Part shown: piece by piece, positions 2,629 to 58,982 of the stretch
Layout of the letters: every line of letters begins with the position of its first letter
Numbering within the stretch: the stretch's first letter is position 1
IMG/VR virus record: IMGVR_UViG_3300002835_000175
Location: 1-64,000 of that record
Direction: 5' to 3' (one strand)
DNA: 64,000 nucleotides
Source: a virus
Notes under the pieces: model-generated
The model's input: the letters and a program-made list of their open reading frames with translations, nothing else
What the model was told of the DNA's origin: nothing
Databases searched by the model: none
Translations under genes and position numbers: made by a program

Positions 2629-2653
2629 GCGTTAGAAATCCAGAAAATCTTTT

Positions 2654-2697: not shown

Positions 2698-3174
2698 TCA
2701 CCCAATATTTAACAGCGAAACCCCAAGATCACGCTTGCACAGTTTAGAACCATCCTCATCGTTGCGATAAGCACATTCGTTAGGCAGATAGCAATAAACC
2801 CCAACACAATGAGAACGCGAGTATTCATCCTTGATAACTCTTTTAATGTGTTTAACGGTCGAACCAGAACAGATTAAATCGTCTAATATAATATATTGAA
2901 AAGGGGCCACTCCCTCGGTACGAAACTCTGAATAGCATTGTTCCCCCTTTCTTACCACAACAATATTCTTGTTGAGTAACTCTGCGATTTGTGGAACCAC
3001 CATCAATCCACTTACACCGCAGCAGGCAATGCTATCAAAACTATCTGCTATTTTTCTAAGATCACAAACAGCCTTAATAATAATCTTATTTCTGGCCTTA
3101 TGATTCAAAACGTGACAAGTGTGGCTAGCACCTTGAATATACTTGCCTTCGGTTGTTTTTCTTACGTCTTCCAT
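2698..3174 (-). CDS. Phosphoribosyltransferase-family protein
   Basis: 158 aa from ATG at 3174. The PRPP-binding signature YIILDDLICSGSTVKHI, at about residues 94-110 (hydrophobic strand, two Asp, then SGST loop), is the hallmark of type I PRTases. The upstream hydrophobic strand ending in CCGVSG fits the second loop of the fold. The substrate cannot be told; orotate-type or nucleobase-salvage roles are possible. A GTG at 3198 would add eight residues but overlaps a tRNA-like sequence; neither start has a ribosome site. Its stop codon touches a 44-bp module. Confidence 0.8.
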   Translation of the reverse strand: MEDVRKTTEGKYIQGASHTCHVLNHKARNKIIIKAVCDLRKIADSFDSIACCGVSGLMVVPQIAELLNKNIVVVRKGEQCYSEFRTEGVAPFQYIILDDLICSGSTVKHIKRVIKDEYSRSHCVGVYCYLPNECAYRNDEDGSKLCKRDLGVSLLNIG

Positions 3175-3628: not shown

Positions 3629-3708
3629 AGTGGGTGAGGGACTCGAACCCCCGAAGTTAATAACACCTGATTTACAGTCAGGCCCATTTGCCGCTTTGGT
3701 AACCCACC
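3629..3708 (-). tRNA. tRNA-Tyr (GTA)
   Basis: Anticodon arm CTGACTGTAAATCAG, long variable region and T loop TTCGAGT; acceptor GGTGGGT/ACCCACT. Confidence 0.95.
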
Positions 3709-3710
3709 AT

Positions 3711-3760
3711 TTTTCGCTGACTACAACCACCACAACCAAATCCGTAGGATTAGCTGAAAC
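3711..3760 (-). repeat. E-type linker element, copy 4
   Basis: Full TTTTCGCTGACTACAACC ... AAATCCGTAGGATTAGC. It fills the gap between tRNA-Asn and tRNA-Tyr almost exactly. Confidence 0.8.
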
Positions 3761-3831
3761 TGGCGAGACAGGATTCGAACCTGTAACCTAGCGGTTAACA
3801 GCCGCTTGCACTACCGTTGTGCTACTCGCCA
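3761..3831 (-). tRNA. tRNA-Asn (GTT)
   Basis: Acceptor TGGCGAG/CTCGCCA, anticodon loop CTGTTAA, T arm ACAGGTTCGAATCCTGT. Confidence 0.95.
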
Positions 3832-3860
3832 CCATCGCAACTCAAACGTCAGCCTCCGAT

Positions 3861-3930
3861 TCCGAGACTACGATTCGAACGTAGAATAAAGGATCCAAAG
3901 TCCTCTGTGATACCGTTTCACCATCTCGGA
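3861..3930 (-). tRNA. tRNA-Gln (TTG)
   Basis: Acceptor TCCGAGA/TCTCGGA, anticodon arm GAGGA-CTTTGGA-TCCTT, T arm CTACGTTCGAATCGTAG. Confidence 0.95.
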
Positions 3931-3932
3931 GG

Positions 3933-4004
3933 GCCGATGGAGGGATTTGAACCCCCGACAGGCGGTTTACAAAACCGCTACTCTACCAACTGAGTTACAT
4001 CGGC
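3933..4004 (-). tRNA. tRNA-Thr (TGT)
   Basis: Acceptor GCCGATG/CATCGGC, anticodon loop TTTGTAA within GCGGTTTTGTAAACCGC, T loop TTCAAAT. Only two bases separate it from tRNA-Gln. Confidence 0.95.
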
Positions 4005-18238: not shown

Positions 18239-18705
18239 TAGATAATGAATTTACTATTATAATAGATACGCGCGAACAAAAACCCTGGGAGTTTTCTAAT
18301 CACGCTACTGCTAACCATAAGTTAGATACTGGAGACTATAGTATACAAGGACTAGAAAGCATTCTCGCTATAGAACGCAAAAGGAACATATCAGAATTCG
18401 CCAATAATATAACAGAAAGTCGTTTTACTGATGTTGTTGATAGATTAAGCAAAACTAAATACTCATTTATTCTTTTCGAGTTCGACATGAAAGATGTAAT
18501 GAATTATCCCATTGGAAGCAATATACCAAAACGACTATGGAACAAAATTAGAATTAGTCCGGCCTTTATTATTAAACATATTGTGGATCTGCAAGTTGAA
18601 CACAATATTAAAATTATTTTCTGTGGCGACAGCTCAAATGCTGAAAAAATAGCTTTGTCTTTAATGAGAAAAATATACAAGAAAGAAAATATCAAAGATG
18701 TATGA
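18235..18705 (+). CDS. ERCC4/XPF-type nuclease
   Basis: 156 aa with all core motifs of the ERCC4 nuclease domain: IIIDTREQKPWEF (residues 8-20), KLDTGDYSI (about 30-38), AIERKRNISEFANNI (about 45-59) and RFTDVVDRL. The G-D-x(n)-E-R-K-x3-D/E arrangement binds metal and cuts branched DNA. Overlaps the HNH gene by ATGA and the terminase by eight bases, so it probably trims branches before or during packaging. Confidence 0.85.
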   Translation: MIDNEFTIIIDTREQKPWEFSNHATANHKLDTGDYSIQGLESILAIERKRNISEFANNITESRFTDVVDRLSKTKYSFILFEFDMKDVMNYPIGSNIPKRLWNKIRISPAFIIKHIVDLQVEHNIKIIFCGDSSNAEKIALSLMRKIYKKENIKDV

Positions 18706-20701
18706 TGATGCTTGGTTGGGATTAGGCGAACTAGATAAAATCGTTATACCAACGAACCCTATGATTCGTCGGAATAAAAAAGATATAGAAAACCCTGATC
18801 GACATTTAATCAAGCTACTTAAAGATCCTGAATACTTTGGAGCAACCTGTAAACTCCTGTTTGATATAGAGCTTCATCCTATACAGGTGGCAATATTACA
18901 AGAGTTTTGGACAAGACCATTTCCCATGTTCGTTGCTAGTCGTGGTTTCGGCAAGTCTTTTATTTTAGCATTATATGCTTTTTTGAAATGCATATTTGTT
19001 CCGGGCACTAAAATTGTTATTGTGGGCGCCGCTTTCCGACAGAGTAAAGTTATATTTGAATATATGGAAACATTATGGAGAAACAGTGCTATTATTCGTA
19101 GTATTTTTAGTGGCAATGAAGATGGTCCACGACGCGATGTTGACAGATGCACTATGAGACTAGGAACAAGTTGGGCCATTGCTATTCCATTAGGAACAGG
19201 TGAAAAGATCAGAGGTTTGCGCGCTCACATTATTATCGCGGACGAATTTGCTTCTATTAGTCCGGATATTTATGAAACGGTTGTTTCTGGCTTCGCTGCT
19301 GTTAGTGCCACACCAATACAAAACGTAAAGAAAGAAGCAAAAAAACAAGCAATGAAAGACGCAGGAATATGGAACGAAGATCTTGAAACACTAAGCCAAA
19401 GCATGGGTAATCAAGCACTAATTGCTGGAACCGCTGATTATGCTTTTAAACATTTTGCTAGTTATTGGAAACGATATAAATCTATTATAGAAAGTAGAGG
19501 AGAAAAATATAAACTAGAAGAAATTTTTAAAGGAGAAGTACCAGATAATTTTAACTGGAAAGACTATAGTATTCTTAGAATACCATATGAATTAATACCC
19601 AAAGGATTTATGGATGACAAACAAGTAGCGCGAGCAAAAGCTACCATTCATACTGGCATATACAACATGGAATACGCAGCATGTTTTACAGAAGATAGCG
19701 ACGGGTTCTTCAGAAGGTCGTTAATAGAAAGTTGTGTAACAAAAGATAATAGTCCAATTATTATTGGCAATGAAAATATCGTATTTGATGCTAAGATAGT
19801 CGGAGATCCAAAATTAAAATATATTTACGGTGTGGATCCTGCTAGTGAAAAAGATAATTTTAGTATAGTTGTTTTAGAATTACATCCTTCTCATAGTCGA
19901 ATAGTTTATTGTTGGACAACAAATAGAACAAATTTTAAAGAAAGACAAAAGGCTGGTCTAATATCAGATCACGACTTCTATGCGTTTTGTGCAAGAAAAA
20001 TACGTAATTTAATGAAAGTATTTCCATGCGAACGCATAGGCATGGATGCTCAGGGCGGAGGTATCGCAATAGAAGAAGCTCTACATGATCCAGCAAAATT
20101 AGAAGAAGGAGAAAATCTAATATGGCCAGTTATAGAAGAAAAAAGTAAAGATACTGATGATCAAGTAGGCTTGCATATTTTAGAATTGGTTCAATTTGCC
20201 AAGGCAGACTGGACAGCACAATCTAATCATGGTTTAAGAAAAGATCTTGAAGATAAAGTTTTATTGTTCCCAAGATTTGACGAACTAAGTTTAGTTTTAG
20301 CTTTAGATCAAGAAAATAGAAATATAGAAACAGCAGATCTAACTCCTCTTTATGATACAACTAGTGAATGCGTACTAGAAATAGAAGAACTAAAAAATGA
20401 ACTGACAACTATAGTAATGAGCCAAACCAGTGGATCATCCGGAGCCAGAGATAGATGGGATACTCCTGATATTAAAATGCCAAATGGTAAAAAAGGAAAA
20501 CTACGAAAAGATAGATATAGCGCATTATTAATAGCAAATATGTTAGCTAGACAAATAAATAGAGCATTACAACCAGTAACTTATGATATAATAGGAACAG
20601 ACGCTTCCAAATCAGTTAAAAATAATGGTCAAATGTATAAAGGTCCTACTTGGTTTACAGAAGCAGCAAATGAGGATATTTATATAGGAATACGGAAGTA
20701 G
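18698..20701 (+). CDS. Terminase large subunit (ATPase/nuclease)
   Basis: 667 aa. Walker A at VASRGFGKSF (residues about 79-88), Walker B at HIIIADEFAS (about 177-186). The RNase H-like nuclease has GVDPASEKDNF (first As p about 380), GMDAQGGG (second about 450) and KDRYSALLIAN (third about 605). It pumps DNA into the prohead and cuts it. Length is at the upper end for the family. A GTGTATAAT box follows its end. Confidence 0.95.
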   Translation: MYDDAWLGLGELDKIVIPTNPMIRRNKKDIENPDRHLIKLLKDPEYFGATCKLLFDIELHPIQVAILQEFWTRPFPMFVASRGFGKSFILALYAFLKCIFVPGTKIVIVGAAFRQSKVIFEYMETLWRNSAIIRSIFSGNEDGPRRDVDRCTMRLGTSWAIAIPLGTGEKIRGLRAHIIIADEFASISPDIYETVVSGFAAVSATPIQNVKKEAKKQAMKDAGIWNEDLETLSQSMGNQALIAGTADYAFKHFASYWKRYKSIIESRGEKYKLEEIFKGEVPDNFNWKDYSILRIPYELIPKGFMDDKQVARAKATIHTGIYNMEYAACFTEDSDGFFRRSLIESCVTKDNSPIIIGNENIVFDAKIVGDPKLKYIYGVDPASEKDNFSIVVLELHPSHSRIVYCWTTNRTNFKERQKAGLISDHDFYAFCARKIRNLMKVFPCERIGMDAQGGGIAIEEALHDPAKLEEGENLIWPVIEEKSKDTDDQVGLHILELVQFAKADWTAQSNHGLRKDLEDKVLLFPRFDELSLVLALDQENRNIETADLTPLYDTTSECVLEIEELKNELTTIVMSQTSGSSGARDRWDTPDIKMPNGKKGKLRKDRYSALLIANMLARQINRALQPVTYDIIGTDASKSVKNNGQMYKGPTWFTEAANEDIYIGIRK

Positions 20702-20702
20702 T

Positions 20703-20711
20703 GTGTATAAT
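20703..20711 (+). promoter_or_regulatory. GTGTATAAT box before portal gene
   Basis: Extended -10-like box 38 bases before the portal start, with no good -35; same sequence at 40364 and 42925. Confidence 0.5.
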
Positions 20712-20748
20712 ACAATTATAATCCTATTACAATACTAATAGAAAAAAT

Positions 20749-22950
20749 ATGGCCAAAAAATATCCAAAAAGCGAAGCTATTCAAGATGCTGTTTTAGCCG
20801 ATTCTGAAGCATATGTTACTTGGGGGGATGACTTAAAAAGCAAACAAGACGCTCTCAAACAAACAGCAGGATGCTTAGATGAATACGGTCTTTTCAAAGC
20901 TAACGCTGGATTTAACTATCGTAGCAATGATTATTCTAATCTTTTACCCGGAGATATAAGCGGTAAACCAGGATTAACTAGACGAGGATATGATTATTTT
21001 CGTCCAGACGAAGCTGTTCCAACAGAAATAAAACAGATTATTCGTAGAGCAGATGATGTTTATCAAAGGGTTGGTCTTGTAAAGAATGTTATTGATCTTA
21101 TGGCAGACTTTGCTGTTCAGGGTATTAAACCAGTTCATAAAAATAAAAGAATAGAAAGATTTTATAGAAAATGGTTTAAGAAAATTAATGGTAAAGAGAG
21201 AAGCGAAAGATTCTTAAATAATATTTATAGAGTAGCAAACGTAGTAATTAATAGACAAACAGCAAAAATTAGTTTAAAAACTGCTGATGAATTCTTTAGA
21301 GCAACAGCGGCAGCAGATACTACAGAACAAGACTCTCTCAATGTAGACGTAGAGAAAAGAGAGATACCTTGGAGATATACTTTTATAGATCCAGTTTATG
21401 TTAATGTGGCTGCTGGTCCTTTAGCATCTTTTGTTGGTCAAAAAAGATACGAGCTTTCTATCCCAGTTGGATTAAGAAAAATTATAACATCACCAAAAAC
21501 AGATAATGAAAAAGCTATAATTGCTGGATTACCATCACAAATTGTAGAAGCAGCAAAAACTAAAAAACCGTATCCTTTAGACCCACAAAAAACTCTTGTA
21601 TTTCATTATAAAAAAGATGATTGGCAGAGTTGGGCATTTCCTATGATCTATAGCATTATGGATGATATTACAGTTATAGAAAAGCTTAAATTAGCAGATA
21701 TGGCCGCGCTAGACGGAGCAATATCAAATATTAGAATTTTTAAACTTGGTAATCTCGAACATAAAATTGCTCCAACAAAAGCAGCAGCAAGTAAACTATC
21801 AAATATTTTACAAAATAATGTTGGTGGAGGAACTTTAGATCTTGTTTGGGGTCCAGATATCGAGCTTTTAGAATCCCAAACTAACGTACATCAATTTTTA
21901 GGGGAAAATAAATACATTCCGCATATGAATAGTGTTTATGCTGGTCTTGGCATTCCTCCAACCTTAACAGGAACATTCGGTGCTGCTGGCACAACAAATA
22001 ATTTCATAAGCCTGAAAACACTTACTCAAAGACTTCAGTATGGCAGAGATACTTTGATCTCTTTTTGGGAGAAAGAATTTGAGTTAGTACAAAAAGCTAT
22101 GGGTTTTAAATACTCAGCTAGATTAGAGTTTGATAGAATGGATCTAAGTAACGAAGATGCAGAAAAAGCACTATTAATTCAATTAGCAGATCGTAATATT
22201 ATTAGTGATGAACTTATTCAATCCAGATTTGGATTTGATTCTGAAATGGAAAAAATTAGACTTAATAGAGAAAATAGAGAAAGAGATACAAATAGGATGG
22301 TTCCCAAAGCCGGTCCTTGGTATGATCCTATGTTTGAAGAAGCAATGAAAAAAATTGCTTTGCAAATAGGTCTTGCTACTCCGAGTCAAGTTGGTCTTGA
22401 GTTGGAAAAGAAAAAATCTGGAGAAAAAACTGTTTTGGAAATGAAAATACCAGCCGCTCCCTTTGGCCAACCAACTAGCGTTAAAGATTCGCCAGAATCT
22501 TTAAAAGGAGTGCCAGGACAAGGAAGGCCCAAAAACTTAAAAGATTCTTCAAAGAGAAAAGAAAAGAAATTTTCCCCACAAACCGGAGCCACACTTCAGT
22601 TATGGGCAGATAGCGCACAAGATAACATTTCTGAAATTATAAATCCAATTCTATTAGATTTTTATAAAAAGAAAAATATGAGAAGTTTATCTAGCATTCA
22701 ATATTTAGAGGCCGAAGAAACACGATCTAAAATCCTCTTTTCTGCATCACCTTTCGATAAGATAGATCAAGACTTTATACAAAAAAGTTTTGCGACTATT
22801 AACAATAATAATGTCAATAAAATTTTTGATCAATATTCTTATTTTCTTACCAATATTAAAAAGTCTTTTGCCAGAGAATTGACTGTTAACGAACTAAAAC
22901 AGGTTAAATCTTATTTCTATTCTATGGTGTATGAAAATCTACACAACTAA
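20749..22950 (+). CDS. Portal protein
   Basis: 733 aa. The region from YDYFRPDEAVPTEIKQIIRR through VYQRVGLVKNVIDLMADFAV is typical of portal N-terminal domains; the middle has the wing/stem-like LEHKIAPTKAAASKLSNILQ and the IPPTLTGTFGAAGTTNNFIS loop. Position right after terminase supports it. It forms the dodecameric DNA gate at one capsid vertex. The C-terminal Lys/Pro-rich stretch (about 580-610) is likely disordered. Confidence 0.9.
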   Translation: MAKKYPKSEAIQDAVLADSEAYVTWGDDLKSKQDALKQTAGCLDEYGLFKANAGFNYRSNDYSNLLPGDISGKPGLTRRGYDYFRPDEAVPTEIKQIIRRADDVYQRVGLVKNVIDLMADFAVQGIKPVHKNKRIERFYRKWFKKINGKERSERFLNNIYRVANVVINRQTAKISLKTADEFFRATAAADTTEQDSLNVDVEKREIPWRYTFIDPVYVNVAAGPLASFVGQKRYELSIPVGLRKIITSPKTDNEKAIIAGLPSQIVEAAKTKKPYPLDPQKTLVFHYKKDDWQSWAFPMIYSIMDDITVIEKLKLADMAALDGAISNIRIFKLGNLEHKIAPTKAAASKLSNILQNNVGGGTLDLVWGPDIELLESQTNVHQFLGENKYIPHMNSVYAGLGIPPTLTGTFGAAGTTNNFISLKTLTQRLQYGRDTLISFWEKEFELVQKAMGFKYSARLEFDRMDLSNEDAEKALLIQLADRNIISDELIQSRFGFDSEMEKIRLNRENRERDTNRMVPKAGPWYDPMFEEAMKKIALQIGLATPSQVGLELEKKKSGEKTVLEMKIPAAPFGQPTSVKDSPESLKGVPGQGRPKNLKDSSKRKEKKFSPQTGATLQLWADSAQDNISEIINPILLDFYKKKNMRSLSSIQYLEAEETRSKILFSASPFDKIDQDFIQKSFATINNNNVNKIFDQYSYFLTNIKKSFARELTVNELKQVKSYFYSMVYENLHN

Positions 22951-47111: not shown

Positions 47112-50100
47112 ATGGCATCAGCTTTTAATCTAACCGCGGAAATTAATCTAAGAGGACCGTCCAATCTTAGTAAAGTTGTATCTGATATTCGTCGTCAATT
47201 ATCAACAGTAACTCTTGATCTTAATATTAATCCTAGATCACTATCTAGCATACAACAAGCTACCGGAAATATACAGTCACTAAATGCTGCATTGAAAAGC
47301 GCATCAACCAATGCTGCTAATTTAAATACTGCTCTAAGTAATCTTGGAACAGCTATTGGAAATGCCTCTAGAGGAATGAATAATCTTGGTGGTGGCGTAA
47401 ATAATATAGCTAATCAAGTTAATAATGCTAGAAAAAGCACTGCTCAAATAACATCACAGATGGAAGAGTTTGGTAAGCAGTCAGCTCTTGCGGTCAGAAG
47501 ATTCGCAGCGTTTAGTGTTGCTACCGGAGGCATATATGCGCTAAGTAGAGCAGTAGCCTCTGCCTATGGAGAATTCTTAAATTTTAATAAAGAACTTGTT
47601 AAACTACAACAAGTTACTGGAGCAACAGAAAACGGATTGAAAGGCATCACTAACGAAATAACCAGACTATCCACTAGTCTTGGTGTGACAAGTTCAGACT
47701 TATTGACCGTGAGTTCAACACTCGCCCAGGCTGGTTTAAGTGCGACAGAAACAAAAACGGCATTAGAAGCCTTAGCTAAATCCGCATTAGCTCCGTCTTT
47801 CGATAATTTAAATGATACCGTAGAAGGTAGTATCGCTTTAATGAGACAGTTCGGTATTAGTGCTAGTGATCTAGAAAGTTCGCTTGGTTCTGTAAATGCT
47901 GTTGCTGCTGCGTTCGCGGTAGAATCAGGAGATATTATTAAAGCTATTCAAAGAACGGGCGGTGTGTTCGCTGCTGCTAGTAAAGGAGTTAGCCAAGGCA
48001 AAGACGCTCTTAATGAATTTATTGCTGTATTTACAAGTGTTCGTCAAACCACTCGTGAAAGTGCAGAAACAATTGCTACTGGTTTAAGAACTATCTTTAC
48101 AAGAATTCAAAGAGGAAGCACCATAGAAGCACTAAAAGAATATGGTGTTGTTTTAACAGATTTAGAAGGTAAATTCGTTGGACCATACGAAGCAATCAGA
48201 AGACTTAGCGAAGGCTTAAAATTATTAGATCCAAGAGATCTTAGATTTAATAAAATAGTAGAAGAACTTGGTGGCTTCCGACAAATCGGCAAGGTTATTC
48301 CTCTTATTCAACAATTCACGGTTGCTCAACAGGCTCTAGGGGTCGCTCAAAGAGGAGCCGGATCTTTGGCTGAAGATGCAGCAATAGCACAAATATCTTT
48401 AGCTAATAAAATTACAAAAGTCAGAGAAGAATTTATAGCTTTAATTCGTGATATAGGACAAAGTAAAAACTTTCAAAGATTTGTGGATATTTCTCTTCAA
48501 TTAGCGAGCGCTCTTATAAGCGTGGCTTCTGCGGCTAAAGAAGTTTTACCAGCAATAGCAGCACTAACAGCTATAAAAGCCATCCCTGCGATTGGTCAAT
48601 TTGTTGGTGGTTTTGGTAGAAACATAGCTCGAAAAAATGATGGTGGACCAGTAAGAGCGTTTGCTAGTGGTGGATATGTACCAGGATCAGGAAATAGAGA
48701 TACCGTTCCTGCTATGTTAACTCCTGGCGAATTTGTTATTCGTAAAAAAGCAGTACAAGCAATTGGTCTTAATGGTTTGAAGAATATGAATAAATATGCT
48801 GGTGGAGGCCCGGTTAAATTAAAAGATTTAGAAAGAAGAAGTGGTTCGGAAACAATTAAAAAAGCATATAGCTCAAAAATACAACCAAATGACAGCATTA
48901 GAGGAAATATTAATCGTAAATCAGAAACCATTAAACCAAATGATCCTAAGTGGACATTTATTCAAAACAACGCAAAACAGAGATATCTTCAATTAAAACA
49001 AAAAAGTCCTAAAGCATCCGATAAAAAACTAAAAGATATAGCTGCTGGAGACGCTTTCGAAACAGGTGTTGAAAAATTTTATGGAGGAACAAGAACTCCA
49101 CAAAGTTATCCTGTTGATATTATTGGTAGAAAAAATCCTACTGAAGTTAAATTTACTAGTAAAAAAGTTCCAATACTAGATCTTTTAAGTAAATTATTTA
49201 GATATAAATATCAACAAAATACTCTTTCTAGATATAATTTTACTCCAAATACAGATGATGTGAATATTGGTAATTTAGATACCATAGAGATGGGGCGTGG
49301 ACAAAAACAAAAATTTATGCAACTATATCCATTTAATAATGGTGGTATAGTTCAAAAATTTAAAAAAGGAGCCAAGGTTCAAGAACTTAGTCCACAATTA
49401 AAATCTCAGGTTGAGGATGCTGGTAGTTTTGAAAATCTAATTAATAGAAATATGATTGATAGACAAGGCAATTATAATTTTGGATTAGTATCGTTAAAGT
49501 CAGGTACTTCCAAAGGAGGTAGGATAGAGAATAGGCCAATTAAAGATACTGGTAAAAGAGCAAGAATTCATGTCGGAGCTTTATCAGACAATAAATCTCA
49601 ATATGGCAATATTGAAAAAGATATCGTTGATAGTTTAGAAGGAGTGATTGTAAATACTGGTAAAGCATTAGCATCATCCATAAAAGCAACACCAGCATCT
49701 GGAAACTTAGAAAAAAATATTTTAAGTGGAGCAGTATTAAGTAGTGCTACTGGAAGCATATTTGAAGCCGCTTTACAAATGGTTGGTGCTCCATTTATTG
49801 ATAAGGTAGAATCATTAAAATCTATAGATTTTCCATTTGGCCTAGGTACTGCTTCTAAATTGTTTGGTCAATTTCCAACAGATGTACCAACTGATGCAAC
49901 AAGAACTTCCGGAGGCGTTGGTAAAGGTATATCAAGTTTTGTTGATCAGATATCTAGATTTACTAAAGCAGTAAATAAAGGAGAATTTTCTAAATCAATA
50001 AAATTAGCTCCTAATGCTTTTACCGCTCAGAATCTATTTGATATTGCTAAAAAAAGTCCAACAAATCAAACACAACTTAATAGTGTATTAGGTGAATTCG

Positions 50101-53100
50101 GATTGCCTAATATTGGTAGAAAAATGCCAAAAGCAACAGGCAATGTTCTTGATAATGCGTTGGCGACCAATAGTAAACTTATTGAAAAATTAAAATCAGC
50201 AGGATTAATATCTGCTAATGCTACGGGTGGTTCAATTTCTGGACAAGATACTGTTCCGGCACTATTAACTCCTGGCGAATTTGTTATAAATAAAAAAGCG
50301 GCAAAAAGAATAGGTTCATCCAAATTACATCAACTTAATAAAGCTGATAAAACACAAGGATTTAATAAGGGTGGAGCTGTCGGAAATATACAAAGTTTTG
50401 CTGGTGGTGGAGGAGTTCAAAGTTTTGCGGCCGGTGGTATGGCTCAAGTATTTAGTGGATTAGTGTCGGTTATTTCTAAATTAATACCTAGTTTTAATCA
50501 ACTATCTACCACTACCGCAACCGTTACAAAAAATATGGCCGCTCAACAAGTGGCGACATTTAGACAGCAAGGGTTGTCTGGAGCTGCTTTGAAAGCCGCA
50601 ATGGTTAATGCCGGATATGCCACTGGCGGCATAAATAATATGAGAAGTAGAAATCAAAAAGCAGCCAATCAAACAGCGAATCAAACTAATGATAGTGGTG
50701 GCGGATTAAAATCTCTAGGCTTGATGTTTATTGGGCCAATGATAGCAGAAGCTATTAATTCTTCTGTAACTAAAAATTTTGGTAAAACCGGAGCTGTTGT
50801 TGGTGCTGGGATAACATCTGTTGTTTCTGGGGCTACTGTTGGTTCAGCTTTTGGTGCTCCCGGAGCTATTGTTGGAGCTGCTGCTGGACTAGCTTCTGCT
50901 TTTATAAATGCCGAATCGGCAGCAGACGCTTATACTAAAGCCCAGAACGAACTAAAAATAGAAACCGAATCATCTAAACTTGAAAAAGCACTACAAAATC
51001 TTTCACAAAATGTTGGAGACACAGCAAGCAATATATCCGACGCTAGTAATGCTCTTATGGCTATTATGTCATCTGGGGCTGAAAATAGACAAATTGTTAC
51101 CAGAGAGTCACAAGGCTTATTAGGACTAGAAGAAGGAACCATAGGAAGATTTATTGGAGAGTTTTTTAGGGACGCGTCCGCTAATTTTTCAGAAACATAT
51201 TTTGGAACAACACCAGAAACAATAGATACAACAGCCCTTAATAGAAATCTTTTATCTGAATCTTTACCACAAGCAACCGCGTTACAAAGAGCCATAGAAA
51301 CACAATTAACATCCGGAATATCTTTAGAAGACGTTTTTAAAAATCTGAAACTTACAGGAGCAGATGCTAATCCTGAAACAAAAAGAACACTAGCAATTGC
51401 TAGAGGCAAAGACGAAGTTACAAAAATAGAAGCAGATATTGCTGCGGCAGAAACTAAGCGTTATACTGGAGGAGACATTAGAGCAAATGGTACTGTTGAG
51501 ACAGCAGAAGAAGAAAAAACAAGAAAACTAGAAGCTTTGAATGCAAAAAGAGCAGCAGCTATAGACAGATTGTCCTCGGAAGAATTAAAAGAAATAGAGA
51601 CTCGTAATAAAAATGCAGCAGCAGCAAAAGCTGTGAGCGTTGAAATAGATATGTTCGCTCAACAGATTAAAAAATTAGGAGGGGTTATAAGTAGGGCCGA
51701 TGCTGAATTTGCAGAAGCTGGTAGATTACGAGACATAGCAACATCCTCTGGTCTAGGAGATGCCAAAATAGTTGGTCCATCAAGATTAGATGAAAATGTA
51801 TTAGGTAATTTAACAGCATATTCTACAGACGAACTTGTTCAAGCATTAGATAGAACATCAGAAACTTTGGGATTTTCTCCAGAATTTAGCAAACAAATAA
51901 AAACTAGCGCTGTAGCACAGCAAACATTAGAATCGGAGTTACCACGAATTCTACTAGAGGCTGCTCAATCTCAAAAAACTCCTGGAGGAGAAGTAGATCA
52001 ATCTGTTACAGACAGAATAACAGAGGTGTTTGATCCATTAAAGGCAGCACTAGGAGAAGAAATAGATTCAACAACTCTAGATACAGCATTAAAAAATGTT
52101 GTTACCGCTCTTGGTAAATCAGCAACATCACTACAAGGAAAGAGTTTCGAAGAGATTGCTGCTAGTGTACCGGAATTACAAGGATTATTAAAGCCATTGG
52201 CTGATGTTACATCAACTGTTGAGTCTTCGTTGAAAGCATTCAATGACATGCTAAGCGCAACCAATAATGAAATGAATAATTATACCAATCATCTTGGTAG
52301 AATTTTAGATTTACAAATCCAAGCATCTTCTATCGAATTAGATGCTGCTAATAATCTTAAACAAGCTCTTGGCAAAGGAGTTTCAGTAACAGAATTAAAT
52401 AGACCATTTGAAAACGCTATAGACTCTTTAACAAGTACTCAGGGACCGAATGGAATTGTTCGTGGAACCGGAACCCTAGATCCAGAAGAGATAGCTCGTA
52501 GATTAGCTCAAGCAGACAAAGAACTTGCTCAAACACAAGCGGGTGGTCAGCAAAAGGGTGAAAGTTTAGATGAATTTTACACTAGATTAGCCAAAAATAA
52601 AACAACGGTCGATAGGCTTGCTAAAGCACAAGAAATGCTTGCTAATAATACCACAAGAGCTTCTAATGCTCTTACTAGAATCGGAGAACTACGACAAGCA
52701 CAAGAAAGTAGACGAGGAACCTTTGATGAAATACTTAAAAATCTAAATAATCCAGAATGGATATCGGAATTTACTAGTCAAGTTGGCTCTCTCGTTAGAG
52801 TTGATCAAGGAGCAGGCACTATATATGATATAGGCCCAGCACTTGAAGCCTTTAGAACAAGAATTGCTGGTATGGATCCATTAGAAAGAGAAGCAGCAAC
52901 AGAAAAATTCTATAATAATATTATTAATATTTTACAAAAGGCCGGATTAAAGGTAGATCCAGAAGTTATACGAGGATTAATAGGAGTTGGCGGTCCGGAC
53001 GCTAAAATGACCCAAGCAATTGATCAATATAATCAAGCAATAAAAGCTCAAACAGATGCCACATTACTATTATCTGAACGTATGGAAGACTCATCTGAAA

Positions 53101-56100
53101 TTTTAAAGACTAAAGTAATAGAAGCAGCAGATGCATTTCTAGATAGAATAAAAAATGCTGGAGATTTACCATTAGAAGCGCGTCCGGTTGGTGTTGGTAT
53201 AGATGGAAATCCTGCCAATGTTGCTGGTTATGCTTCTAGAGGAGGAATGATTTATGCTAGCAAGGGCCAGCTAGTTAATTTTCAACCAAAAGGAACCGAC
53301 ACTGTGCCAGCGATGCTAACTCCTGGCGAGTTTGTTGTTAATGCTAGAGCCACCAAAAAGAATATGGGATTATTAAAATCTATAAATAATGGATCTAATA
53401 ATACTGGATATTCTAAGGGGGGTATGGTTTATTTAGCTGATGGTGGCGTAATAGATATCAATAAAGGTAAACAATTATTTAGTAAATTTTTGACATCTAG
53501 TGGTGATGACAAATATTATGCTGATCTATTAGGATCAGGATCCCAAGCTGACTTAGATGCTATTTTTAAAGATTTGCGAGCCACTAGTGAAAGACCATTA
53601 GGATACGAATCTTTAGCTCCAGAAGATATAGAATCAGTAGACGCTGCTATAAATGAATTTATTAAGAATTATGAATTTGGAAGATCAAAAGCAGCTAATG
53701 CTGAAGGAGACAAAGTTAGAGAAGCTAGAGCAGCAGATGCTCCAAGATTAGCTCAATTACAAGCCGAAGAACTTCGAAAAGCCGTAAATGCTGGTATAGT
53801 TAGTGCTGATGATCTTGGAATTAGGGATGGAGATTATTCAACAGCATCTAGACCACTAAGCATTGACGAAAGAGATAAATTAAGACAAGCGCAGATCAAC
53901 GCTCAGGCGGCTGAAAGAGAACAACAAAGAAAACAAGAATTTGAGGGACGTTTTGCGGAAATTGAGAAAACTAAAAGACAGATGGAAACTGTGAAACAAG
54001 CAGATACTCAGGCAAGAACAGAAATTAATCCACTAACTAAAAAACCATTTTCAAGCGATGCTGAAAAACAGGGTGTTTTAGCACGACAGGCTTTTGAGGC
54101 TCAACAAAAGGTTCTTTCCGATGATAAAGCAAGAAAATTACGTCTGAAAGAAGAAACAAAAATGTACCAGGCAGAAAGTTTTGGGGCGTCTCTCGTAGAT
54201 ATGTATAGAAACAGTAGCTATTATAACCAAACATCCGATCCTATTTTAAGAGAATTTATTGAAAATAGAATAAGAGAACAAACACCATCTATTTATGGTA
54301 CTGATTGGGATAGAAGGAGAGTCAACGTGCCTTTAGCCAAATCTAGGTCATCATTGAGAGCTAGAATAGGAGAGATAGTAACGTCAGCTACTGTTGAATA
54401 TAATAGACAGGGACGAGCAAGACAAGAGATGGTCGCTAAATCTCAAGAAGACTTTGCTAAGAAAAATATGGATACGGCCTTGCAACAATTTGGCGAAGGT
54501 GTTGATAAAAGTCCAGTTTTAGCTGCTGTTAGTGCTGTTCCAAAGAATGTTGCTAATGTTATAAGAACAACTGTTGGCGGAGCCGGTGTTCTTGCTGGTG
54601 GACTAACTTATGGAGCTGGCAAACTTACTGGAAGTGATATGCTTACTCAGTTTGGTCAAGAGTTAGCAAAATCCGGCGGCGCTCAGGCCGGAATGGGTAT
54701 AGAAGGAATCCGACAAGTTGGCTCAGGATTAGGATCTCGTTTGGGCTTTGGAGAAGCATATGGTACTGCGGAACAAGAAGCAATGAAAAGAAGAGAAGCT
54801 TTGATATCTCAAGAAGTGGAGAGAGCTAGTGGGGCCTATCAAACAGATAACAGAACAACGTTGGGTAATCTGTTAACTCCTGAAAATGTTGTTAGAGGAG
54901 CCATTACAACAGGAGATATTTTCGGTGAAGCAGCTGGTGATATTGGTGGTGAAAAGTTATTTGGAAGATTGTTTCCAAATGCTTTCAAAGGAATGGCAAA
55001 ATCTGTCGGACCCAGACCACCAACCCCTGTTAAAACAACAACAGCTAGTGCTGATTTATTTGATAATACAAACGTAAGATTTCCAACAGGAGCTTCTAGT
55101 GATATTGCAAATCGCACAACATCTGGCACAGGCACAAATTTTGCTAATATGACAGCAAATCTATTGGATCAAAAAGCGTCAACAGAGTTTGGACAAACAG
55201 TTGGACGAGGACTTGGTATTCTTGGAGGAGGAATTAAAAAAGGTTTTTTTGGAGGTGTTGATTTGGCCGAAAAAGGTCTAGCTGGTTTACAAGATTTTAC
55301 CGGCAAGGCACTTATGGGTACGGCCAGTATTTCTGGTAAGAGCGTTATGGGTGCTGCTAGTATTGCTGGTAAAGGAGTTATGGGTGCTGGTAAAGGAGCT
55401 ATGGGCGCCGCTAGAGGTTTGTTACAGTTTGAAAAAAGCCCAATTTTAAATTCATTACGAAAAATAGGCGTCCTTCCAAAAATAGACTGGATGAAGAAAC
55501 AAGCAAGAAAAACCGCAAGAGCGCAAGGAGCTGGTCGTTTTGGCCTTGGTGAAAAAATTATGGGTTTTGGTGAAAATATAAGTAATATATTTAGAGATAG
55601 ATCCACAAGAAAATGGTTTGAAAATTTACAAAAACAACAAAAACTATCTGAAAATCCTTTAGAAGATCTGGTAAAATTAGGATCAGAGAAAAGAACCAAA
55701 ACAACTCAACCAATTCCAGAGACACCAAAACCAATAACTCAAATTGAACAACCAAAACCAATAACTCAAGAAAAACCTTTGTCTTTTGGAGATGCTATAC
55801 GAGCAAGAGCAGCGGAACAAGGAATTACAGTAGAACAAAAATTAGAAGAATTAAGAAATCTTTTTCCTGAGGGTAGAAGCACAATCAAGTCTGGTCTTTC
55901 TAGTCCTATTGGAGCAAGATCTTCAAAATCTATAAAAGATATAGCTTTATCATCTAAAGCAAAAGCATACGCAGAAAATATACCTCAGGCTCAAAGAGAT
56001 GCCTTTGAAGCTTTGTCACGAAATGTTAATCCAGATAAACAAGAAGCATTTTTAATAGACATGCTAGAAAAAGCATCCGCTGATGAGTTGGCATGGATAG

Positions 56101-58982
56101 ATGACCCAGCCGCTTTTGAAACACATCTCAATAAAGTAGCAAATAAATGGTCTACGAACTTTAGAGCTCGTGGATTACCTGATACATCATCATATATAAA
56201 AAAGGCTAAAGGAATATTTACTAAAAAAGGTAGTGTATCTTCAAATCCGGTTATAGGAGTAGGTCCTGGATCGCAAATGTCAACAGGGGTTCATGAATCT
56301 ACACATTTTGCCGCTGGTATGGCTGGTAAATTGAATATGACATATGATGAACTGAAAAAGATGGTTGATCCAAAATTATTGGACTCTTTTTTGGATACAG
56401 AATATAATGATATAGCTAAAGGACTAAATAGCGCATATAATGCTAAATTTGTTAGAAATCCAAACTCTAATGTAGCTGGAGCAGAATTTTTTACTACTCT
56501 TAATCAAGCCGCTTTCGACCCTGCTACTAAAGACTTATTTGAGAAATCCTCTAAAGCTCAAGAAATTTTAAGACAAATGTGGAAAGCGCATGGATATAAA
56601 AAGGGCGGAACTGTTTATGCCAGCAAAGGCACACTAGTTCCATATCAACCTCGTGGCACAGATACTGTACCCGCTATGCTTACTCCGGGAGAGTTTGTGG
56701 TAAATGCCAGAGCCACTAAAAACAATCTTGGACTTCTCAGATCTATTAATGGTGGCGCTAAGGGATATAGTAAGGGTGGGGTTGCTTATTTACAGGATGG
56801 TGGAGATGTTCAGAAGCCAGAACAAAAAGATGGAGATGGCTTATTGGGTATGAGACATCTCGGAGAAGGTATGGACTTGCTTTTCGCATCGTCTTTCACC
56901 GATCAAAACCTAACTCCAGAACAATTCGAGTACGCTGCTAAAGAAATAGAAACTGGACTAGGCTGGATTAAAGGGCAGTCAGAACTATCTCCAAATACCA
57001 TAGATAATCAGGCTGTTATGGATTTCGAGACTGCTATAATGAGCTTGATACAAAGCAGTGGCGAAGAAATTAGCAAAATGTCTAATATAGAGTTTGATGC
57101 TTGGAGAACACCATATAATGACGCGTATAATAAACTTAAACAATCTTTACAGAATCGTCAAGGTCCACCAACATACATATTAGACGATATGGTTTCTCTA
57201 TTCGATAATCAGACTCCAACACCTACTCAACAACCCGCTGGAGTATCAGCGCCTCAAACTATCGGTTCAAAATTAATTGGAATGCTTCCAGAATCTATTA
57301 GAGGAGTTGTTGGTACTACTGCTGCTTCTATCCAAACTATGCAAAGCATGAATACTAAGGCTGAAGAAATGCTTGAGAATGTAAGTGGTGCTCAACCAGA
57401 TTATTATGATGAGCCAACATACAGAGAATTTATTAAAGGGTTGGTAGGTATGACGCCACCCCAACCACCCGTACCACCAATTAAAGATAAATTTATAACA
57501 GACGCTAGATATATTAAGAAGGCTGATGAAGAATTATTCGGTGAAACAACTCCAGGCAAGACACAAAGAATTACTGGTCTAGACACAAGAGAAAAAGGAA
57601 AAATAGTTCAAAGCGATAATGATGAAACAGCTCAGACCGAACAAAAAAATAGAGAAAACATATTTGCAATAAAAGAGTTTGATCGCTTAAGATCAGAATT
57701 ATTAATAAGAGCACAAGAACAATCGTTAGAGGAGGACCCACTAAAGACAGATACTACAACATATTTAACTGCGGTTAATGATTATATAAAAAATAACTTC
57801 GGTAAGACAATAGAATCTTTTGAAGAGTTTGGATTACCTTCTATTTATAGTTTAGAAGATTTTAAAAACAAATCATTAGAAACATTTTTAGTTCCAAAAG
57901 ATTTTGATAAAAAACGTTTTGAGGAAAAAAAGAAAGCTGATGCAGCTTGGGCTTTGGAAAATAATGCAGAAGACCCCTTTAAAAATCGAAAACTATCTGG
58001 TGTTAGAGAAGGGGATTTATCTTCTTTAAGTTTAGGTCTGAAAGCAGGAAGTGCTTTAGTTGGCGAGCTGGGGAATGAATCTAATAAAATAGTAGGTTAT
58101 AAATCAGCTTATAGTCAATATAAGGACTCTTTAGCGTTTTATAAAGTACAAAGAGGTAAATTTAATTATTCATCAATGCAAGAGGATAAACGTAAAAATT
58201 ATGAAGATTCAAAGAAAAATAAACAACTAGCATATCAACAAGAAATGGAACGAAGACGCACTCAAAATATGTCTACTGGTGGTATTGTTTATGCTAGTAA
58301 GGGCCAATTAGTAAACTATCAACCACGAGGAACCGACACTGTTCCCGCAATGTTAACTCCGGGAGAATTTGTGGTCAATCGTAAAGCCACTAGACAAAAT
58401 TTAGGCTTATTACAACAAATTAATAGTCAAAACTACAATACCGGAGGTATGGTAAAACCCAAATATTTTGCTGATGGTGGAGTTAATGGTGGTAATATTA
58501 GTTCATCCGGAGGATCATCTGGCGGTGTATTATCAATTGATACTTCTAATTTGGATGGTTCATTTTCGTCTTTTGATTCTATTGTTGGCCAGTTATCTGG
58601 TAGTATTCAAGAATTTGTTAGTGGCGGATCAGCAATAATAAGTGGATTTGGAGCATTAGATAGTATCGTAAGTGGATTTACAGCATTATCAACAGCAGCA
58701 GCATTATTAGGAGGAGCATCAACAGGACTAACAACTTCTATCGGAGAATTTAATACTGCTGTTGGTAGATTACAATCTGCCCTCGACGGCATACCAGATT
58801 CAATAAGCCTTAATGTAACAGGGTCCATACCAGTAAATGTAACAGTAACAGTTAATGGCGGACAAGGATTGGGAGAAAAACTTGAGCAGTTTGCTGACGA
58901 TATTTATAATACAATATCAACCGAATTAAGTAATAAAACTAATGGTGGAATTAAATTAGATTTACGCACTTCTAAAAAATAG
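47112..58982 (+). CDS. Tail tape measure protein, 3956 aa
   Basis: Helix-rich N terminus with phage-tape signatures (GGIYALSRAVASAYGEFLNF, QVTGATENGLKGITNEI, TGLRTIFTRIQRGSTIEALK). The motif D-T-V-P-A-M-L-T-P-G-E-F-V recurs five times (about residues 530, 1050, 2065, 3185, 3745), each followed by a Gly-Gly turn. Residues about 640-700 look like a PD-(D/E)XK nuclease, and HESTH at 3061-3065 like a zinc peptidase. At roughly 0.15 nm per residue the tail would be near 0.6 micrometre. It sets tail length and may carry enzymes into the cell. Confidence 0.9.
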   Translation: MASAFNLTAEINLRGPSNLSKVVSDIRRQLSTVTLDLNINPRSLSSIQQATGNIQSLNAALKSASTNAANLNTALSNLGTAIGNASRGMNNLGGGVNNIANQVNNARKSTAQITSQMEEFGKQSALAVRRFAAFSVATGGIYALSRAVASAYGEFLNFNKELVKLQQVTGATENGLKGITNEITRLSTSLGVTSSDLLTVSSTLAQAGLSATETKTALEALAKSALAPSFDNLNDTVEGSIALMRQFGISASDLESSLGSVNAVAAAFAVESGDIIKAIQRTGGVFAAASKGVSQGKDALNEFIAVFTSVRQTTRESAETIATGLRTIFTRIQRGSTIEALKEYGVVLTDLEGKFVGPYEAIRRLSEGLKLLDPRDLRFNKIVEELGGFRQIGKVIPLIQQFTVAQQALGVAQRGAGSLAEDAAIAQISLANKITKVREEFIALIRDIGQSKNFQRFVDISLQLASALISVASAAKEVLPAIAALTAIKAIPAIGQFVGGFGRNIARKNDGGPVRAFASGGYVPGSGNRDTVPAMLTPGEFVIRKKAVQAIGLNGLKNMNKYAGGGPVKLKDLERRSGSETIKKAYSSKIQPNDSIRGNINRKSETIKPNDPKWTFIQNNAKQRYLQLKQKSPKASDKKLKDIAAGDAFETGVEKFYGGTRTPQSYPVDIIGRKNPTEVKFTSKKVPILDLLSKLFRYKYQQNTLSRYNFTPNTDDVNIGNLDTIEMGRGQKQKFMQLYPFNNGGIVQKFKKGAKVQELSPQLKSQVEDAGSFENLINRNMIDRQGNYNFGLVSLKSGTSKGGRIENRPIKDTGKRARIHVGALSDNKSQYGNIEKDIVDSLEGVIVNTGKALASSIKATPASGNLEKNILSGAVLSSATGSIFEAALQMVGAPFIDKVESLKSIDFPFGLGTASKLFGQFPTDVPTDATRTSGGVGKGISSFVDQISRFTKAVNKGEFSKSIKLAPNAFTAQNLFDIAKKSPTNQTQLNSVLGEFGLPNIGRKMPKATGNVLDNALATNSKLIEKLKSAGLISANATGGSISGQDTVPALLTPGEFVINKKAAKRIGSSKLHQLNKADKTQGFNKGGAVGNIQSFAGGGGVQSFAAGGMAQVFSGLVSVISKLIPSFNQLSTTTATVTKNMAAQQVATFRQQGLSGAALKAAMVNAGYATGGINNMRSRNQKAANQTANQTNDSGGGLKSLGLMFIGPMIAEAINSSVTKNFGKTGAVVGAGITSVVSGATVGSAFGAPGAIVGAAAGLASAFINAESAADAYTKAQNELKIETESSKLEKALQNLSQNVGDTASNISDASNALMAIMSSGAENRQIVTRESQGLLGLEEGTIGRFIGEFFRDASANFSETYFGTTPETIDTTALNRNLLSESLPQATALQRAIETQLTSGISLEDVFKNLKLTGADANPETKRTLAIARGKDEVTKIEADIAAAETKRYTGGDIRANGTVETAEEEKTRKLEALNAKRAAAIDRLSSEELKEIETRNKNAAAAKAVSVEIDMFAQQIKKLGGVISRADAEFAEAGRLRDIATSSGLGDAKIVGPSRLDENVLGNLTAYSTDELVQALDRTSETLGFSPEFSKQIKTSAVAQQTLESELPRILLEAAQSQKTPGGEVDQSVTDRITEVFDPLKAALGEEIDSTTLDTALKNVVTALGKSATSLQGKSFEEIAASVPELQGLLKPLADVTSTVESSLKAFNDMLSATNNEMNNYTNHLGRILDLQIQASSIELDAANNLKQALGKGVSVTELNRPFENAIDSLTSTQGPNGIVRGTGTLDPEEIARRLAQADKELAQTQAGGQQKGESLDEFYTRLAKNKTTVDRLAKAQEMLANNTTRASNALTRIGELRQAQESRRGTFDEILKNLNNPEWISEFTSQVGSLVRVDQGAGTIYDIGPALEAFRTRIAGMDPLEREAATEKFYNNIINILQKAGLKVDPEVIRGLIGVGGPDAKMTQAIDQYNQAIKAQTDATLLLSERMEDSSEILKTKVIEAADAFLDRIKNAGDLPLEARPVGVGIDGNPANVAGYASRGGMIYASKGQLVNFQPKGTDTVPAMLTPGEFVVNARATKKNMGLLKSINNGSNNTGYSKGGMVYLADGGVIDINKGKQLFSKFLTSSGDDKYYADLLGSGSQADLDAIFKDLRATSERPLGYESLAPEDIESVDAAINEFIKNYEFGRSKAANAEGDKVREARAADAPRLAQLQAEELRKAVNAGIVSADDLGIRDGDYSTASRPLSIDERDKLRQAQINAQAAEREQQRKQEFEGRFAEIEKTKRQMETVKQADTQARTEINPLTKKPFSSDAEKQGVLARQAFEAQQKVLSDDKARKLRLKEETKMYQAESFGASLVDMYRNSSYYNQTSDPILREFIENRIREQTPSIYGTDWDRRRVNVPLAKSRSSLRARIGEIVTSATVEYNRQGRARQEMVAKSQEDFAKKNMDTALQQFGEGVDKSPVLAAVSAVPKNVANVIRTTVGGAGVLAGGLTYGAGKLTGSDMLTQFGQELAKSGGAQAGMGIEGIRQVGSGLGSRLGFGEAYGTAEQEAMKRREALISQEVERASGAYQTDNRTTLGNLLTPENVVRGAITTGDIFGEAAGDIGGEKLFGRLFPNAFKGMAKSVGPRPPTPVKTTTASADLFDNTNVRFPTGASSDIANRTTSGTGTNFANMTANLLDQKASTEFGQTVGRGLGILGGGIKKGFFGGVDLAEKGLAGLQDFTGKALMGTASISGKSVMGAASIAGKGVMGAGKGAMGAARGLLQFEKSPILNSLRKIGVLPKIDWMKKQARKTARAQGAGRFGLGEKIMGFGENISNIFRDRSTRKWFENLQKQQKLSENPLEDLVKLGSEKRTKTTQPIPETPKPITQIEQPKPITQEKPLSFGDAIRARAAEQGITVEQKLEELRNLFPEGRSTIKSGLSSPIGARSSKSIKDIALSSKAKAYAENIPQAQRDAFEALSRNVNPDKQEAFLIDMLEKASADELAWIDDPAAFETHLNKVANKWSTNFRARGLPDTSSYIKKAKGIFTKKGSVSSNPVIGVGPGSQMSTGVHESTHFAAGMAGKLNMTYDELKKMVDPKLLDSFLDTEYNDIAKGLNSAYNAKFVRNPNSNVAGAEFFTTLNQAAFDPATKDLFEKSSKAQEILRQMWKAHGYKKGGTVYASKGTLVPYQPRGTDTVPAMLTPGEFVVNARATKNNLGLLRSINGGAKGYSKGGVAYLQDGGDVQKPEQKDGDGLLGMRHLGEGMDLLFASSFTDQNLTPEQFEYAAKEIETGLGWIKGQSELSPNTIDNQAVMDFETAIMSLIQSSGEEISKMSNIEFDAWRTPYNDAYNKLKQSLQNRQGPPTYILDDMVSLFDNQTPTPTQQPAGVSAPQTIGSKLIGMLPESIRGVVGTTAASIQTMQSMNTKAEEMLENVSGAQPDYYDEPTYREFIKGLVGMTPPQPPVPPIKDKFITDARYIKKADEELFGETTPGKTQRITGLDTREKGKIVQSDNDETAQTEQKNRENIFAIKEFDRLRSELLIRAQEQSLEEDPLKTDTTTYLTAVNDYIKNNFGKTIESFEEFGLPSIYSLEDFKNKSLETFLVPKDFDKKRFEEKKKADAAWALENNAEDPFKNRKLSGVREGDLSSLSLGLKAGSALVGELGNESNKIVGYKSAYSQYKDSLAFYKVQRGKFNYSSMQEDKRKNYEDSKKNKQLAYQQEMERRRTQNMSTGGIVYASKGQLVNYQPRGTDTVPAMLTPGEFVVNRKATRQNLGLLQQINSQNYNTGGMVKPKYFADGGVNGGNISSSGGSSGGVLSIDTSNLDGSFSSFDSIVGQLSGSIQEFVSGGSAIISGFGALDSIVSGFTALSTAAALLGGASTGLTTSIGEFNTAVGRLQSALDGIPDSISLNVTGSIPVNVTVTVNGGQGLGEKLEQFADDIYNTISTELSNKTNGGIKLDLRTSKK

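What the first reader, a model, noticed from the sequence alone, without database searches (positions are those of the whole stretch)
56225..56600. HExxH metalloprotease-like segment inside the tape measure
Seen: GVHESTHFAAG (HESTH at residues 3061-3065) and a downstream AGAEFFT glutamate that could be the third ligand, in a helical segment of about 120 residues. Inference: a zinc peptidase for self-processing or for crossing the envelope.
Basis: partly seen in the sequence, partly recalled or inferred. Interest (0 to 1): 0.5.

Follow-up and report, generated by a model that had tools for sequence, protein, structure and literature searches.

The report
Zinc-peptidase cargo in phage tape measure
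A giant tail-length protein of an uncultured phage carries, in a swappable slot between repeated linker motifs, a domain with the hallmarks of a zinc-dependent protein-cutting enzyme, and some relatives carry other such domains in theirs, which suggests the phage's ruler protein may double as a carrier of enzymes injected into the host.

Summary
The motif is real: HESTH at residues 3061-3065 (56292-56306) of a 3956-aa tape measure protein (TMP) with only 8 His; chance expectation 0.001. The candidate third ligand is E3125. The segment belongs to a domain of about 213 residues (2954-3166; 55971-56609) whose divergent relatives sit in TMPs of other uncultured phages. H, E, H and the downstream E are kept at all 8 places examined. 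The direct link is to one member (L166, E 3e-6); links to the rest run through it. AlphaFold of a better-behaved relative (L155, pLDDT 70) resembles gluzincins (Z about 6); the window domain's own model failed (pLDDT 49). Across 84 TMP ORFs HExxH occurs 21 times (0.15 expected), in about seven families. These TMPs share a repeated DTVPAMLTPGEFVV module with regions of unshared sequence between modules; the three closest cores lack this domain. They are almost cysteine-free, and the window's TMP also has a conserved PD-(D/E)XK-like motif set. Best reading: a modular TMP carrying swappable injected enzymes, here a gluzincin. Peptidase supported; self-processing or envelope crossing untested, a general maturation role unlikely.

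The parts
47112..58982 (+). giant tape measure protein, 3956 aa, no cysteine
   Evidence: ORF; PF10145 E 6e-24; PHROG tape measure families; 0 Cys, 8 His
47112..48626 (+). conserved N-terminal tape-measure domain (residues 1-505), includes PhageMin_Tail 181-375
   Evidence: 55-75% identity in 19 of 29 records searched, besides the same virus (100%) and one truncated hit (44%); PF10145
48633..48761 (+). PGEF module 1 (DTVPAMLTPGEFVI)
   Evidence: motif scan
49047..49154 (+). PD-(D/E)XK nuclease-like motif set GDAFE / YPVDII / TEVKF (residues 646-681), candidate second enzymatic cargo in slot 1
   Evidence: P-x-D and E-V-K-F kept in L118, L123, L126 and L148 (same record as L122); GDxxE seen in WIN and L148 only
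50181..50309 (+). PGEF module 2
53232..53360 (+). PGEF module 3 (GTDTVPAMLTPGEFVV), upstream border of the slot
54765..56390 (+). part of slot 3 without match (E 1e-6) in the 16 other TMPs compared (residues 2552-3093)
   Evidence: all-against-all blastp; no alignment to L109, L111 or L112 there
55971..56609 (+). predicted gluzincin domain (residues 2954-3166)
   Evidence: homology to L166; family alignments A2, A6
56292..56306 (+). HESTH, residues 3061-3065: two predicted zinc ligands and catalytic Glu
   Evidence: invariant in A2 and A6
56484..56486 (+). E3125, predicted third zinc ligand (AGAEFFTTL)
   Evidence: invariant in A2 and A6
56595..56723 (+). PGEF module 4, directly after the zincin domain, downstream border of the slot
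58269..58397 (+). PGEF module 5 and start of the conserved C-terminal part

Best explanation
Residues 2954-3166 form a catalytically competent zinc metallopeptidase of the gluzincin type (H3061, H3065 and E3125 bind zinc; E3062 is the general base). It is one of several interchangeable enzyme domains that this phage group carries in slots of its giant tape measure protein, between modules of the form GG-xVYAxxG-GTDTVPAMLTPGEFVV. Shown: the motif, its conservation, recurrence of HExxH segments, slot variability beside a conserved core, near absence of cysteine. Inferred: the TMP lies stretched in the tail tube (general knowledge of tape measure proteins), leaves with the DNA, and its slots fold after entry; the peptidase then cleaves a host protein, or frees neighbouring cargo such as the nuclease-like domain.
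For: Chance expectation 0.001 for the window protein; 21 HExxH against 0.15 expected in 84 TMP ORFs, with permuted motifs EHxxH, HxxEH, HxxHE and HExH at 0. 21 in 89 PGEF ORFs (294,574 aa) against 3 in 605 other ORFs (365,492 aa) of the same loci. H, E, H and downstream E invariant in seven rows. L166 homology: blastp E 3e-6 with L166 as query, 4e-5 with the window as query; z 12 against 1,000 shuffles with the last four residues before the module cut off. The five other members support each other in leave-one-out searches, E 2.5e-8 to 7e-22. L166/L210: dN 0.088, dS 0.473 over the domain. L155 model pLDDT 70, pTM 0.75; its re-aligned structural rows are metallopeptidase or lethal-factor-type chains, best Z 6.4. 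Slot swapping: L109, L111 and L112 share 70-74% of residues 3-572 and 43-44% of the C-terminus, but no alignment covers HESTH. Cys 0.005% in PGEF ORFs against 0.871% in other ORFs.
Against: The window domain's own model failed (pLDDT 49) and none of its 50 structural rows shown is a zincin that I recognise. phmmer with the window domain did not list L166 at E up to 10. With the window left out of the profile it is found only at 8.5e-4, over 3124-3166, next to the conserved linker (likewise 1.9e-4); direct pairwise scores to L155 and L172 are at shuffle level. For the L155 model Foldseek's best E is 0.9, with nuclear receptors among the rows, and Z is below 8, weak by the tool's own note. No Pfam or PDB sequence match above cut-offs. 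Only 12 of 19 HExxH lie in segments scored variable, which are 40% of residues. Another close core, L112, has an HExxH of a different family. Delivery into the host and any substrate are unshown.
Confidence: 0.55

Rival explanations
1. Self-processing peptidase: the zincin cleaves its own TMP, for example near the adjacent PGEF module, to mature the tape or free neighbouring cargo.
For: The domain ends directly before PGEF module 4, as do those of L146 (two copies), L155 and L172 (HExxH to PGEF 121-178 residues). Autoproteolysis by zincin-like peptidases was proposed for polyvalent proteins (PMC5512222, passages seen).
Against: PGEF-type motifs occur in every TMP ORF of the set (selected so), HExxH in 17 of 79, so cleavage at PGEF cannot generally need it. 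HExxH families are non-homologous and six of 19 lie 1,135-2,046 residues before the next PGEF.
Confidence: 0.2
2. Envelope-crossing enzyme: it cuts a cell-envelope protein or peptidoglycan cross-link so that the tail or DNA can pass.
For: Tape measure proteins with peptidoglycan-degrading motifs are known (TM4, cited in PMC12619734, passage seen); [quoted passage not shown]
Against: Structural neighbours of the L155 model are mostly protein endopeptidases, not peptidoglycan hydrolases; the close cores L109 and L111 carry no HExxH at all, so entry does not generally need one.
Confidence: 0.12
3. Degenerate or structural remnant: a zincin-derived spacer without activity, kept for tail length.
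For: The window domain is the most weakly linked family member and its model is an all-helical low-confidence one.
Against: All four catalytic positions are kept and half of the protein's 8 His (3005, 3061, 3065, 3160) lie in this 213-residue domain; the relatives L166/L210 are under purifying selection.
Confidence: 0.1
4. Chance motif.
For: A single HExxH in a long protein can be random.
Against: Expected 0.001, recurrence 21 against 0.15, homologue with the same motif.
Confidence: 0.02

Closest known systems
Zincin-like MPTase domains of polyvalent proteins (Iyer et al. 2017, PMC5512222; passages seen)
   Same: HExxH plus Glu from a later helix; embedded in large multidomain phage proteins with other enzymes; unified by those authors with lethal factor; proposed to be injected
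   Different: Here the carrier is the tail tape measure protein itself, with PGEF-bounded slots; none of their 12 clades was compared; no Pfam match above cut-off
P23-45 gp96, 5,002-residue TMP with virion RNA polymerase and a metallopeptidase domain (PMC10770324; passages seen)
   Same: Giant TMP used as carrier of an enzyme that works at infection
   Different: Cargo is an RNA polymerase; the type of its metallopeptidase is not stated in the passages seen, which describe no swappable slots
HExxH cargo protein BDI_2459 of a contractile injection system (PMC12210884; two passages seen)
   Same: A putative HExxH metalloprotease carried by a phage-tail-like injector; the passage reports weak activity on E. 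coli when sent to the periplasm
   Different: A separate cargo protein, not part of a tape measure protein; no sequence comparison made here
Lethal-factor/Pro-Pro endopeptidase/MtfA-like gluzincins (M34 and M90 codes, and MtfA for 3dl1/3khi, recalled)
   Same: Fold resemblance of the L155 model, Z 5.1-6.4 over 126-141 residues
   Different: 10-13% identity; Foldseek E near 1; found for a relative, not for the window domain
Tape measure proteins with peptidoglycan hydrolase motifs (TM4; cited in PMC12619734, passage seen)
   Same: Enzyme inside a TMP
   Different: Different enzyme class (recalled)

Membership tests
Phage tape measure protein | TMP homology and size | tested here: met
   PF10145 85 bits, cut-off 33; PHROG 28 and others; 3956 aa
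Gluzincin metallopeptidase | HExxH plus downstream Glu, conserved in homologues | tested here: met
   invariant in the six rows of A2 and seven of A6; alignments of 16-31% identity to the window row
Gluzincin metallopeptidase | zincin fold with ligand geometry | tested here: inconclusive
   L155 relative resembles gluzincins, Z up to 6.4; window domain model pLDDT 49, no zincin recognised; ligand distances not measured
Gluzincin metallopeptidase | zinc binding and proteolysis | not testable with these tools
   needs purified protein
Lethal-factor/PPEP/MtfA-like (M34/M90) | detectable sequence or fold membership | tested here: inconclusive
   no PDB sequence match; weak fold match of a relative
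Polyvalent protein | two or more effector-type enzymatic domains in one polypeptide | tested here: inconclusive
   zincin plus PD-(D/E)XK-like motif set; neither enzyme proven
Polyvalent protein | membership of a described MPTase clade | not tested
   clade alignments not at hand; Pfam gave no MPTase match
Polyvalent protein | delivery into the host with the DNA | not testable with these tools
   needs experiment
PD-(D/E)XK nuclease | conserved D and ExK | tested here: met
   P-x-D and E-V-K-F in WIN, L118, L123, L126, L148/L122
PD-(D/E)XK nuclease | restriction-endonuclease-like fold | not tested

The most novel reading that the evidence does not exclude
In a large group of uncultured phages the tape measure protein is a modular injection vehicle: a constant cysteine-free core with PGEF-bounded slots into which unrelated enzyme domains (several zincin families, nuclease-like domains, many unknowns) are swapped, so that each phage threads its own set of effectors into the host ahead of or with its DNA. 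PGEF would be the cargo border.
Probability: 0.45. Interest if true: 0.82.

Novelty: new variant of a known kind. Interest (0 to 1): 0.62.

Why it matters
Injected phage effectors are known mostly from other virion proteins and a few special tails (general knowledge). If a whole phage group loads a variable set of enzymes into its ruler protein, then the variable slots of tape measure proteins are a place to look for unknown anti-host and anti-defence enzymes. It also gives a test of how much of a TMP enters the cell, and whether cysteine loss marks proteins that must pass a tail tube unfolded.

Tried and rejected
Close relatives of the window domain: in viral contigs only the same virus, none in 28 further records, none in plasmids; in phages 2 Parabacteroides phage records at E 0.3, over residues upstream of HESTH, not followed. 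Segments of L112 and L116: no phage match. Pfam: no match above cut-off; below it, L155 and one L146 copy hit the same model PF19527 (DUF6055) around HExxH at E 0.03-0.05. On 65 variable segments Pfam gave EF-hand (2 of 65) and SHD1 (2 of 65), otherwise single weak or tape-measure matches; PHROGs gave single-member matches, most named tape measure; NCBIfam gave seven families, none an enzyme family that I would use. PADLOC was not run.

Glycine zipper at residues 1240-1259 as a membrane device, suggested by PMC10240207 (passages seen): zipper patterns are in 71 of 79 ORFs but in 58-68 of 79 after block shuffles, so not used as evidence.

Enrichment of HExxH in variable segments: 12 of 19 against 40% of residues; weak, partly because families with more than three matches count as non-variable.

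Moraphages (PMC12619734, passages seen) as the same lineage: not tested; those authors identified no TMP gene.

Literature: 8 searches of an open-access library; from their listings I opened passages of PMC10770324, PMC7824862, PMC5512222, PMC12619734, PMC10240207, PMC8472413, PMC6893835 and PMC12210884. None of these passages describes zincin cargo slots in tape measure proteins. One search listed 15 of 50 papers; subscription journals and preprints are not covered. 'PGEF' in PMC6893835 is a gene name (PgeF), unrelated.

Counts and rows dropped: the 84-ORF set left out L110, L124, L127, L128, L130, L135, L137, L139, L144, L148, L160 as copies or pieces of listed ones, but still holds near-duplicates (for example L181/L182, L167/L175, and L133/L147/L159 at 94%), so 21 HExxH are about 7 families. 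The 79-ORF set (used) dropped further copies but, by my slip, also lost two records altogether: L126, and L123 together with L160; none of the three has HExxH. Of the 74 ORFs, 46 reach an end of their locus and may be cut.
Full report
What was claimed and what is there. The ORF 47112-58982 encodes a 3956-aa tape measure protein. HESTH is at residues 3061-3065 and the proposed third ligand is E3125. The protein has 8 His in all; the expected number of HExxH is 0.001, and 17 of 20,000 shuffles show one. Four of the 8 His lie in the 213-residue stretch discussed here. The window is part of a 64,258-base virus record; a 159-kb IMG/VR contig holds the same virus (99.98% over 17,880 bases).

Anatomy of the carrier. 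The protein repeats a module, in its fullest form GG-x-VYA-x-x-G-...-GTDTVPAMLTPGEFVV, with PGEF at 538, 1054, 2071, 3192 and 3750. Terminase relatives (444 stretches, best 80 kept) led to 29 records searched for the TMP N-terminus; 21 of 29 matched, one of them the same virus and one a truncated end. TMP ORFs of the fetched records are 2168 to 5862 aa, plus one with an open frame of 6900, all with PGEF-type motifs. All-against-all comparison shows shared N-terminal, middle and mostly C-terminal parts, and regions without any match between modules. Against L109, L111 and L112 the window TMP aligns over residues 3-572 (70-74%), a middle part starting at 1037-1277 and ending near 2120 (31-33%), and about 3706-3950 (43-44%); within 2552-3150 only L109 aligns, from residue 3119 on, in a hit that runs into the module.

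Relatives of the segment. Direct searches for close relatives found only the same virus. One, in L166, is homologous to window residues 2956-3168: blastp 26% identity, E 3e-6 in the set of 91 ORFs, 4e-5 the other way round, while phmmer did not list it; Smith-Waterman z 12 with the last four residues cut off, none of 1,000 shuffles reaching it. L166 in turn belongs with L155, L172 and two copies in L146: leave-one-out hmmsearch gives 3e-14, 3e-15, 2.5e-8, 7e-22 and 2.5e-10 for those five, but only 8.5e-4 for the window domain, over residues 3124-3166. In the six-row alignment the invariant residues include H3061, E3062, H3065 and E3125, at 16-31% identity to the window row; with L210 added they stay invariant in seven rows. 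A profile built without the window found the same virus's contig at E 1.9e-4 among 47 records, again over the last part only, with one unfollowed match at 0.0026 in another record. L210 and L211 are 84% identical to L166 and keep HELAH; over the domain L166/L210 have dN 0.088 and dS 0.473. The six domains of A2 end in a KGG/RGG that begins the module-like stretch; in L166 the PGEF itself is 420 residues from HExxH.

HExxH is a recurrent feature of these TMPs. In 84 ORFs (283,769 aa) there are 21 HExxH; composition predicts 0.15 and 20 rounds of local shuffling gave a mean of 0.15; the permuted motifs EHxxH, HxxEH, HxxHE and HExH are at 0 and HExxxH, HDxxH and HKxxH at 1 each. Other ORFs of at least 250 aa in the same loci (605, 365,492 aa) have 3, against 21 in 89 PGEF ORFs. 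By blastp the 21 fall into about seven families: the window's; L133/L147/L150/L154/L159/L181/L182; L152/L159/L167/L175; and the single L112, L116, L120 and L188. Within the two larger other families the motif is kept in 7 of 7 and 4 of 4 aligned members, queries and near-duplicates counted. Several, such as L133, L150 and L154 with EEFLTTL, have a Glu in a similar setting further on (read by eye).

Structure. The window domain's model is poor (pLDDT 49, pTM 0.34) and in its 50 structural rows I recognise no zincin. The model of L155, predicted with the family alignment A6, is better (pLDDT 69.9, pTM 0.75) with strands, then the helix 82-96 that carries HEFGH at 87-91, then helix 151-163 that carries E152. 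Foldseek has no significant match (best E 0.9, a Pro-Pro endopeptidase; many other rows are nuclear receptors); in the viral library the first row is an annotated metalloprotease at E 0.5. Re-aligned by VIA-align, 17 of the 18 rows shown (23 of 144 chains reach Z 2) are a putative metal-dependent hydrolase (MtfA-like, recalled), Pro-Pro endopeptidase, lethal-factor or Certhrax chains, Z 4.4 to 6.4; the last, Z 3.0, is a 595-residue chain of an ACE2 complex, probably ACE2, itself an HExxH peptidase (recalled). For one lethal-factor row (1pwq, Z 4.4) the aligned range, 54-255, is not the 594-776 range of the other lethal-factor rows. These Z values are in the range the tool calls common, so I take them as support, not proof.

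A second enzyme-like stretch. Residues 646-681 read GDAFE, YPVDII, TEVKF. Relatives L118, L123, L126 and L148/L122 keep P-x-D and E-V-K-F at 28-34% identity, the pattern of PD-(D/E)XK nucleases (pattern recalled). It lies in the first slot.

Cysteine. PGEF ORFs have 0.005% Cys in 294,574 aa, other ORFs of the same loci 0.871% in 365,492 aa; 53 PGEF ORFs in prokaryote contigs have 11 Cys in 70,743 aa. The window TMP has none. I infer selection for a chain that must stay unfolded or thiol-free in the tail; the same depletion in the slots suggests that the slots travel with the tape.

How it probably works. The TMP occupies the tail lumen and leaves at infection (general knowledge of TMPs). The slots then fold; the zincin cuts a host protein, or releases neighbouring cargo. 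HExxH is optional (17 of 79 ORFs), non-homologous between many phages, and this domain is absent from the three closest cores, of which L112 has an HExxH of another family. That argues for effector-like cargo rather than a maturation step. This last part is inference.

What is known. Polyvalent proteins carry zincin-like peptidases with HExxH and a Glu on a later helix, related by their authors to lethal factor (PMC5512222, passages). The P23-45 TMP carries an RNA polymerase and a metallopeptidase domain (PMC10770324, passages). A contractile injection system carries a separate HExxH cargo protein (PMC12210884, passages). The present case joins these ideas in one carrier with module-bounded slots. 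Eight literature searches and the passages opened from them gave no description of that.

Verdict. Observation confirmed; peptidase supported, with the weakest link being the single bridge (L166) and the failed model of the window domain; the role as injected, swappable cargo is the best reading but unproven.

Noticed in passing
window 49047-49154: PD-(D/E)XK nuclease-like motif set in the first slot of the same tape measure protein, P-x-D and E-V-K-F kept in four other TMPs
   Followed up: partly
window 47112-58982 and PGEF ORFs of L109-L203: Tape measure proteins of this group are almost cysteine-free (0.005% against 0.871% in other ORFs of the same loci)
   Followed up: partly
window 48633, 50181, 53232, 56595, 58269 (module starts): GTDTVPAMLTPGEFVV-type module repeated five times; similar stretches also on contigs of Enterococcus, Nostoc, Burkholderiales and others
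   Followed up: partly
variable segments in alignment A5: EF-hand matches in 2 of 65 cargo segments and SHD1 in 2 of 65; few others have a Pfam match
   Followed up: no
L146 residues 1958 and 2293: Two related HExxH domains in neighbouring slots of one tape measure protein
   Followed up: partly
G010:C1:13471-13578 (L292): Match to the zincin profile (E 0.0026) in an open frame of 211 aa, about 99 kb from the tape measure gene
   Followed up: no
window 18698-22950: Terminase with 444 related stretches in IMG/VR, while the following 733-aa protein has no match in the phages collection
   Followed up: no
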